Of a stretch of 64,000 nt of DNA, positions 42,455-44,364 are shown in pieces. A program made the position numbers and the translations under genes. Location of the stretch: NCBI GenBank assembly GCA_947650365.1, contig OX393550.1:100268972-100332971 (forward strand), given 5' to 3'. The stretch is from Chamaelirium japonicum (taxonomy: Eukaryota > Streptophyta > Magnoliopsida > Liliales > Melanthiaceae). The stretch's first letter is position 1, and each line of letters begins with the position of its first letter. A model generated the notes under the pieces. The model ran no database searches. It worked only from the letters and a program-made list of their open reading frames with translations, and was not told where the DNA came from.

Positions 42455-42845
42455 AGAGGATACGAGATATGAGCTGCCAGTCTATTTTTGTCGAAATTGA
42501 ATTTGCGATTCATTTTTCCACCTAGATATTTTTTTTTTTTGTGGATCGTCAATTTATGGCTAAATGATTACCCTCACAAAAAATCATCAAATTTGAAAAC
42601 CTCTAGGGCGGTCAAATAAGCATTTCATATTAACGACTGAAATAAACGGTTATAAACCGTCTACATATTTGACCCTCCTAAAAGTTTTAAAATTGATGAT
42701 CTTTTATGAGGATGATCATCTAGCCATAGATAGATGAACCACAAAAAAAATTAAAAAATTAAAAAATTAAAAAATCTCTAGATCGGAAAGGAGTCGCTAG
42801 CCAATTTTGATGGAAATAGACTGGCGGCTTATTTTCCGTTGCCTC
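42455..42845. mobile_element. Foldback element 1 (about 390 bp)
   Basis: The arms are 42455-42635 and 42650-42845. 'Gctgccagtctatttttgtc' on the left pairs with 'ccgccagtctatttccatc' read from the right, and the inner arms pair along 'gtggatcgtcaatttatggc', 'atcaaatttgaaaacctcta' and 'gggcggtcaaat'. The outer ends are AGAGG next to 'atatatat' on the left and CT repeats on the right. It shares inner sequence with 43968-44364. Confidence 0.78.
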
Positions 42846-43000
42846 TCTCTCTCTCCATCTTTAAATTTGGGAGGTGACCGAGGTGGGGTGATGGCTTGTG
42901 GTGTGTGAGTTTAGATCTTCTCCACTCCATTGCTTGAATTGGATCGTCCGATGCATGATCGTATCCATCCATTCCGCATCCAATGACTAAGGGGCCGTTT

Positions 43001-43360
43001 GGCTCCGCGTAAAGTTTACCGAAGTCACAGGTCCCATGTTTGGCTCCATGGAACTGGAGTCTGTAGAATTGTAGTTCTGCCAGTTACAATGTTTATTTTG
43101 TTGGTGAAGAGACGCACCCGATGCCCACATGCGGAATATTATCGAACACCTTGCGTGCGCCACACCCATGACACCTCGGACCTTGTTGTTGGTGGGACAA
43201 ACCACGATGAAGAGAAGCAAGACAAATGTATCACAAAGAAAAAACAAACAATAATAATACGAGGTAAGAGATTTAATAAGAGTCACCCAATGTGGGCTAC
43301 ATCCTCGGGATAAGCTTGGAGTTCGGTAGGGCTCCACTATGATGGTGGCAAGATAATGAG
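43001..43360. other. Intergenic DNA with a possible MITE end
   Basis: 'Ggggccgtttggctccgcg' at about 42991 resembles the terminal sequence of many plant MITEs. No matching right end was found. Confidence 0.35.
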
Positions 43361-43466
43361 ATACTGGCAACTCCTAACTTCTCATCCTTCAAAATTGGTA
43401 ACCCATTCCCTTCTCCATCAATCTCTAGAGTTCCAAACAACAAAAGCCCTAGAGAGAGAAACCCCT

Positions 43467-43537
43467 CTCTCTCTCTCTCTCTCTCTCTCTCTCTCTCTCT
43501 CTCTATATATATATATATATATATATATATATATATA
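43467..43537. repeat. (TC)n followed by (TA)n
   Basis: A compound microsatellite that leads into foldback element 2. Confidence 0.9.
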
Positions 43538-43687
43538 GAGGAATGTTAGGATGCGGCGTGCGGTGCGTGCGGCGCCGCACCGCAGCCGTCTGATGCACTG
43601 CTGCGGTGCGTGCGATGCACGCAGCAGTGCATCAGACGGCTACTGCGGTGCGCCGCACGCACCGCACGCCGCATCCTAACACCCCTC
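43538..43687. mobile_element. Foldback element 2, 150 bp, nearly a full palindrome
   Basis: The outer arms GAGGAATGTTAGGATGCGGC and, from the right, GAGGGGTGTTAGGATGCGGC are joined through 'gtgcggtgcgtgcggcg' to inner arms 'ccgtctgatgcactgctgcg' and their complement, with a loop of about 14 bases. GC-rich in an AT-only setting. (TA)n on both sides. Confidence 0.9.
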
Positions 43688-43715
43688 TATATATATATAT
43701 ATATATATATATATA

Positions 43716-43865
43716 GGGGTATGCTAAAATGCGGCATGCGGTGCGTGCGGCATTGCACCGCAGCCGTCTGATGCACGCGCTGCGTGCATGCGATGCACGC
43801 AGCAGTGCATCAGACGGCTGCGGTGCGATGCCGCACGCACCGCATGCCGCATTCTAGCACTTCCC
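43716..43865. mobile_element. Foldback element 3, 150 bp, sister of element 2
   Basis: The same architecture and very similar sequence as 43538-43687 ('atgcggcatgcggtgcgtgc' left, 'cagccgtctgatgca' inner). (TA)14 separates the two, and a long (AT)n follows. The ends are GGGGTATGCTAAAATGCGGC and, from the right, GGGAAGTGCTAGAATGCGGC. Confidence 0.9.
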
Positions 43866-43967
43866 TATATATATATATATATATATATATATATATATAT
43901 ATATATATATATATATATATATATATATATATATATATATATATATATATATATATATATATATATA
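43866..43967. repeat. (AT)n microsatellite, about 102 bp
   Basis: A pure AT repeat. The YIYIYI open frames on both strands are artefacts of it. Confidence 0.95.
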
Positions 43968-44364
43968 AGGAATGGGATGCTGCCTATCAAAGCAGCGTTT
44001 TTGCTGCTTTGAGACATTGTTTGACCATCCTAGAAGTTTTGGAATTTGATAAAATTTGGTGAGGGTGTTGTCTAGGGTAAGATGATCATCCTCAGAAATT
44101 TTCATCAAATTCCAAAACTTCTAAGAGGGTCAAATGGTCGAAGCAAAATGCTGCAGATTTTAACGGCGACTGCAGACGACTGATTTTGCTTCGACCATTT
44201 GAACCCCCTAGAAGTTTTGGAATTTGATGAAAATTTGTGAGGATGATCATCTTACCCTAGACAACATCCTCACCAAATTTCATCAAATTCCAAAACTTCT
44301 AGGATGGTCAAACAATGTCTCAAAGCAGCAAAAAATACTGCTTTGATAGGCAGCATCTCATTTC
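43968..44364. mobile_element. Foldback element 4, about 397 bp
   Basis: Left 'ggaatgggatgctgcctatc' pairs with the right-hand 'gaaatgagatgctgcctatc'. The arms continue through 'aaagcagc', 'gctgctttgagacattgttt' and 'gaccatcctagaagttttgg'. Inner sub-arms repeat 'ctagaagttttggaatttga' and 'gaggatgatcatc' in both orientations, so several alternative hairpins are possible. (AT)n of about 100 bp on each side. Confidence 0.9.

What the first reader, a model, noticed from the sequence alone, without database searches (positions are those of the whole stretch)
42455..44364. Four foldback elements with a shared terminal motif, in or beside (TA)n arrays
Elements at 42455-42845, 43538-43687, 43716-43865 and 43968-44364 are each nearly complete palindromes. 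Reading inward from both sides, seven of the eight ends fit a pattern close to TATA-GRGG-ATG-(T)ARRATGC-GC. Three are embedded directly in long TA repeats. Elements 2 and 3 are sisters, and 1 and 4 share inner arms. This resembles the rice Micron MITEs, known for lying in (TA)n, but a foldback family with GC-rich hairpins and several interchangeable cores would be a distinct group.
Basis: partly seen in the sequence, partly recalled or inferred. Interest (0 to 1): 0.75.

Follow-up and report, generated by a model that had tools for sequence, protein, structure and literature searches.

The report
Hairpin mini-transposons clustered in TA repeats
A stretch of what is probably a plant chromosome carries four small, protein-less hairpin elements, three of them in a row inside long TA repeats, which is the known habit of a kind of jumping DNA already described in barrel medic, rice, guayule and pineapple, so this is an ordinary though tidy example.

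Summary
Four foldback elements lie at 42456-42845 (E1), 43538-43687 (E2), 43716-43865 (E3) and 43968-44364 (E4). E2-E4 stand in a row separated only by perfect (TA)n; E1 lies about 700 bp away with (TA)4 on one side and a CT run on the other. All four fold far better than shuffles. The shared terminal motif is strong at four ends (E2, E3) and weak or gapped at the other four. E2/E3 are sisters (88%); E1/E4 share inner arms. Best reading: non-autonomous Mutator-like (MULE) foldback MITEs of the TA-microsatellite-targeting kind (MuTAnT, SaTar including rice Micron, Ac-mMITE, TAFT). The printed MuTAnT terminal mask agrees with the two E3 ends at 12 and 11 of 16 positions; E2 reaches 9, E1 and E4 only 5-7. 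Four-segment foldbacks, GA-rich ends and TA-linked, non-nested clusters are all in print. None of the window's 52 ORFs of 110 aa or more has a MULE domain. No target site duplication is readable. The host genome could not be searched, so copy number, empty sites and transposase source are untested. An ordinary new member of a known kind; a 'distinct group' is not needed.

The parts
42456..42845 (.). E1: diverged foldback element, ends GAGG...CCTC; left flank (TA)4, right flank a CT run
   Evidence: inner arms related to E4
43504..43537 (.). (TA)17 array; left end adjoins (CT)20, right end abuts E2
43538..43687 (.). E2: 150-bp GC-rich (69%) hairpin element, ends GAGGAATGTTAGGATGCGGC / GAGGGGTGTTAGGATGCGGC
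43688..43715 (.). (TA)14 array joining E2 and E3
43716..43865 (.). E3: 150-bp GC-rich (65%) hairpin element, sister of E2 (88%); ends match the MuTAnT terminal mask at 12 and 11 of 16 positions
43866..43967 (.). (TA)51 array joining E3 and E4
43968..44364 (.). E4: 397-bp foldback; outer terminal repeat of about 50 bp, then in each half one segment and its own inverted copy (four similar segments in all)
44365..44462 (.). (TA)49 array right of E4

Best explanation
E1-E4 are copies of non-autonomous Mutator-like (MULE) foldback MITEs of the kind that inserts into (TA)n microsatellites. A MULE transposase made elsewhere in the genome would act on the terminal repeats and move the element into a TA run. 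A new element can enter the TA run left beside an older one, so elements stack end to end without interrupting each other; the flanking dinucleotide runs then change length by slippage. Shown here: the foldback structure, E2/E3 kinship, E1/E4 kinship, the non-nested TA-linked row, and the likeness of E3's ends to the MuTAnT terminal mask. Inferred: mobility, the MULE transposase, the way of insertion, the insertion order, the plant host.
For: Palindromes and folds. All four TA arrays of 28 bp or more abut E2-E4. E3 ends against the printed MuTAnT mask GGGGTTTGCTAGAACA: 12 and 11 of 16; 39 of 127,970 positions on both strands reach 11 or more, and of those 39 only these two directly follow TATATA; E2's ends reach 9, as do 992 of 127,970 positions. 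MuTAnT: foldback of four similar segments, 90% of copies 200-300 bp, (TA)n flanks, 0-4 distal G (PMC4486113, parts 1-2 of 4 read); E4 shows four similar segments. SaTar: clusters joined by microsatellites, often (TA)n, never nested; Micron = rSaTar2, with ends like an autonomous MULE (PMC5907723, passages and one section). Ac-mMITE: consensus mostly starting GA and ending TC, GA/TC flanks put down to slippage (TC mostly at the 3' end), clusters, two families with similar terminal repeats (PMC8449440, passages and one section); this fits the CT run right of E1's CCTC end.
Against: No 9-10 bp target site duplication can be read, because the flanks are TA or CT repeats. No MULE domain in any of the 52 ORFs of 110 aa or more. 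E1 and E4 ends match the MuTAnT mask little or no better than background (5-7 of 16) and the E2/E3 motif only weakly. Four-and-thirty-three other places in the window (37 in all, outside the elements) match the mask at 11-12 of 16, so the mask alone proves little without the TA border. The (CT)20 left of E2 is on the wrong side for slippage from E2's own GAGG end and is unexplained. No copy outside the region was seen, because the genome could not be searched. PMC12550479 finds Micron-like MITEs mainly in Poaceae and Rosaceae and absent from most other species (passages), and the host here is unknown. PMC5907723 holds that many SaTar flanks do not fit plain cut-and-paste.
Confidence: 0.8

Rival explanations
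1. TA-targeting MITEs of another DNA-transposon superfamily (for instance Tc1/mariner with a TA target), only looking like MULEs at the ends.
For: No TSD or transposase seen; TA flanks cannot tell a 2-bp TA duplication from a 9-bp one inside (TA)n. The MuTAnT authors thought that TA targeting arose independently in several unrelated DNA-transposon families, naming TAFT and Micron. E1 and E4 ends do not match the MuTAnT mask.
Against: E3 ends resemble the MuTAnT MULE terminal mask. MuTAnT, SaTar (with Micron) and Ac-mMITE were assigned to MULEs by their authors or by later ones.
Confidence: 0.12
2. E3 arose from E2 (or the reverse) by tandem duplication of a 178-bp unit of TA run plus element, rather than by a second insertion. 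The elements themselves remain MITEs, so this is compatible with the best explanation.
For: TRF reports a 178-bp period with 2.2 copies and 87% matches; E2 against E3 is 88.4% in direct and 86.3% in inverted order.
Against: Near-palindromes of equal length inserted in TA give the same picture, and related families form such rows, read there as adjacent insertions. Arm comparisons do not decide.
Confidence: 0.25
3. Not mobile: palindromes formed in place by inverted duplication, and TA arrays expanded around unstable hairpins.
Against: E1 and E4 lie 1.1 kb apart and share inner arms, while their outer arms fall outside the alignment; E2 and E3 share ends and length; E2-E4 have sharp borders with TA on both sides.
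Confidence: 0.07

Closest known systems
MuTAnT (Medicago truncatula; PMC4486113)
   Same: Foldback with four similar segments, (TA)n flanks, G-run ends of variable length; terminal mask GGGGTTTGCTAGAACA close to E3's GGGGTATGCTAAAATG
   Different: E2/E3 are shorter (150 bp) and GC-rich; internal sequence not compared (the consensus is in a supplement that I did not see); E1 and E4 ends do not match the mask
SaTar elements, including rice Micron / rSaTar2 (PMC5907723)
   Same: Clusters of small elements joined by TA runs, never nested; non-TA microsatellite flanks also occur
   Different: gSaTars about 400-1700 bp, rSaTars 380-1900 bp; their terminal letters are in additional files that I did not see, so no sequence was compared
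Ac-mMITE-1 and -2 (pineapple; PMC8449440)
   Same: GA...TC ends, (TA)n with some GA/CT flanks, two families with similar terminal repeats, clustered
   Different: Lengths 510-570 and 210-270 bp; sequences not compared
TAFT elements (maize; Wang and Dooner 2006, not seen, only as cited in PMC4486113 and PMC5907723)
   Same: (TA)n flanks, said to reach up to (TA)50 on each side after insertion
   Different: Sequences not seen

Membership tests
TA-microsatellite-targeting MULE MITEs (MuTAnT / SaTar / Micron kind) | Small, non-coding, terminal inverted repeats or foldback | tested here: met
   150-397 bp, strong foldbacks; the two ORFs of 110 aa or more that overlap an element (44247-44705, 44320-44712) have no Pfam match
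TA-microsatellite-targeting MULE MITEs (MuTAnT / SaTar / Micron kind) | Flanked by (TA)n microsatellite | tested here: met
   Met for E2, E3, E4 on both sides; E1 has only (TA)4 on one side and a CT run on the other
TA-microsatellite-targeting MULE MITEs (MuTAnT / SaTar / Micron kind) | Clustered, linked by microsatellite, not nested | tested here: met
   E2-(TA)14-E3-(TA)51-E4
TA-microsatellite-targeting MULE MITEs (MuTAnT / SaTar / Micron kind) | Many dispersed copies in the genome | not tested
   The genome search did not complete in 5 of 5 tries
Mutator-like (MULE) superfamily | 8-11 bp target site duplication | tested here: inconclusive
   Flanks are dinucleotide repeats, so no TSD can be read
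Mutator-like (MULE) superfamily | Terminal repeats shared with an autonomous element coding a mudrA-like transposase | tested here: inconclusive
   No MULE domain in the window's 52 ORFs of 110 aa or more; genome not searchable
MuTAnT | Terminal repeat close to GGGGTTTGCTAGAACA | tested here: inconclusive
   E3 12 and 11 of 16, E2 9 and 9, E1 and E4 5-7 of 16
Micron (rice) | Sequence similarity to Micron terminal repeats | not tested
   No Micron sequence was available in what I read

The most novel reading that the evidence does not exclude
E2/E3 represent a so far undescribed subfamily of TA-targeting MULEs reduced to an almost complete GC-rich hairpin with little but terminal repeat, sharing a transposase with unrelated foldbacks (E1/E4), and the long TA runs here were made by the insertions themselves, since the window has no other long TA run.
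Probability: 0.2. Interest if true: 0.35.

Novelty: new member of a known kind. Interest (0 to 1): 0.2.

Why it matters
Mainly annotation: such clusters are easily mistaken for satellites or for a new transposon class. The one open question they touch is whether long TA runs precede insertion or are made by it (transposase with polymerase stuttering, or circular intermediates and recombination; both models are discussed in PMC5907723, section read). That every perfect TA run of 28 bp or more in this 64 kb abuts an element fits either.

Tried and rejected
Searching the host genome: the genome search 'own' was tried five times with the same request and not answered. Searching for copies outside: the 23-base end motif gave 0 exact matches in genome contigs and in viral contigs, and two inner pieces gave 0 in viral contigs. 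These collections hold prokaryotes and viruses, so this says next to nothing about plants. Transposase source: 52 of 52 stop-to-stop ORFs of 110 aa or more were scanned against Pfam at E up to 0.01. Above the curated cut-off there were only copia-type gag (37004-37426) and Pol_BBD (37652-38029); three matches lay below their cut-offs (HscB_4_cys, Vitelline_membr, NT-C2); none was a MULE domain. Shorter exons would be missed. Rejected: one family for all four elements, since E1/E4 share nothing with E2/E3 beyond weak ends. Literature on GC-rich TA-targeting hairpin MITEs: one search listed 3 papers, none on the subject by title or abstract start; none was opened. Two broader searches for the named families brought up no further family of this kind in the rows listed (3 of 3, and 20 of 921). 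Papers: PMC4486113, parts 1-2 of 4 read; PMC5907723, passages and one section; PMC8449440, passages and one section; PMC12550479, passages; all others only in search listings.

Full report
What is there. Four foldbacks lie in 1.9 kb: E1 42456-42845, E2 43538-43687, E3 43716-43865, E4 43968-44364. E2-E4 form one uninterrupted row: (CT)20-(TA)17-E2-(TA)14-E3-(TA)51-E4-(TA)49. E1 ends about 700 bp before E2, with (TA)4 before it and a CT run after it. Identity of each sequence to its own reverse complement is 75, 87, 90 and 93% for E1-E4, against shuffle maxima of 73, 83, 83 and 75% (100 first-order shuffles each). DNA folding energies are 12 to 38 standard deviations below dinucleotide shuffles.

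How they are related. E2 and E3 are 88% identical. E1 and E4 share their inner arms (local score 79, at most 33 in 200 shuffles) but score no more than shuffles against E2/E3 (13-18). In E4 each half is itself a segment followed by its inverted copy, so that four similar segments make the element; in E1 the same comparison is much weaker (scores 23 and 35 against 107 and 121 for E4's halves).

The terminal motif. Without gaps it is found only at the four ends of E2 and E3 (up to 3 mismatches; 4 matches, 0.10 expected). With gaps allowed, E1 left (best register), E1 right, E4 left and E4 right score 7.5, 6.0, 7.0 and 4.5, reached by 20, 95, 37 and 309 of 11,599 sampled background sites; among 478 control sites that follow TATA elsewhere in the window, 1, 1, 1 and 13 do as well. 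So a shared motif at all eight ends is plausible but weak for E1 and E4. The E2/E3 scores are circular, since those ends built the motif.

What it is. The MuTAnT paper prints the terminal mask GGGGTTTGCTAGAACA for a MULE family that sits in (TA)n in Medicago. E3's ends agree at 12 and 11 of 16 positions. Of 127,970 positions on both strands 39 reach 11 or more, and of these only E3's two directly follow TATATA; the other 37 show that the mask without its TA border would prove little. E2's ends agree at 9 (992 of 127,970 positions reach 9), E1's and E4's at 5-7. It was the only mask of this kind that I saw in print, and I met it after reading the ends. MuTAnTs are foldbacks of four similar segments; all but 14 of 218 copies lie in perfect (TA)n, those 14 indicate 9-bp TSDs, and 0-4 distal G are kept. 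Guayule and rice SaTars form clusters joined by microsatellites, never nested, and rice Micron is one of them (rSaTar2), with ends like an autonomous MULE. Pineapple Ac-mMITEs mostly start with GA and end with TC, with GA/TC flanks attributed to slippage, and 46.1% of full-length copies are clustered; no autonomous element was found there. A survey of 207 plant genomes also counts Micron-like MITEs and cites them as likely Mutator derivatives, but finds them mainly in Poaceae and Rosaceae (PMC12550479, passages). The MuTAnT authors, earlier, took TA targeting to have arisen independently in unrelated families. The window fits the published picture in form, setting and clustering, and in terminal sequence for E3 and, less, E2.

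How it likely works. A transposase in trans, inferred to be of MULE type, moves the elements into TA runs. Repeated insertion into the TA left beside an earlier element makes the row. The CT run right of E1's CCTC end fits slippage as proposed for pineapple; the (CT)20 left of E2's TA array does not, since it lies on the wrong side and is not next to the element. Whether the long TA runs were targets or products is open: PMC5907723 reports for maize that short TA targets of 6-8 bp expand to up to (TA)50 on each side, holds that many SaTar flanks do not fit plain cut-and-paste, and offers circular intermediates with recombination as another model (section read). Here all four perfect TA arrays of 28 bp or more abut an element, and the only other perfect ones of 10 bp or more are 12 and 14 bp, which fits either.

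Limits. No MULE domain in 52 of 52 ORFs of 110 aa or more. No TSD is readable. The host was not identified; that it is a plant is my inference from the look of the repeats and from copia-type fragments, which other eukaryotes also have. Local tandem duplication of E2/E3 as a 178-bp unit cannot be excluded.

Verdict. Real, and of known kind: a compact cluster of TA-associated foldback MITEs, most likely of MULE type. Low interest, except as a further instance for the question of TA expansion.

Noticed in passing
window 29998-30760 (also 28211-28366 and 6736-6771): Region dense in short inverted and tandem copies of a unit like GCTACAGTGAAATCACTGTAGC, perhaps a degenerate satellite-like or MITE-derived array.
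   Followed up: partly
window 39331-41800: Tandem arrays of 199-bp and 95-bp units over about 2.4 kb, ending some 650 bp before E1.
   Followed up: no
window 37004-38029: Fragments of a copia-type LTR retrotransposon (gag and Pol_BBD domains).
   Followed up: partly
window 44528-44668: Compound (AC)13 and (AG)55 microsatellite about 65 bp right of the last TA array.
   Followed up: no
window 43465-43504: (CT)20 directly left of the (TA)17 array before E2, not explained by slippage from E2's own end; possibly the remnant border of a lost neighbour element.
   Followed up: no
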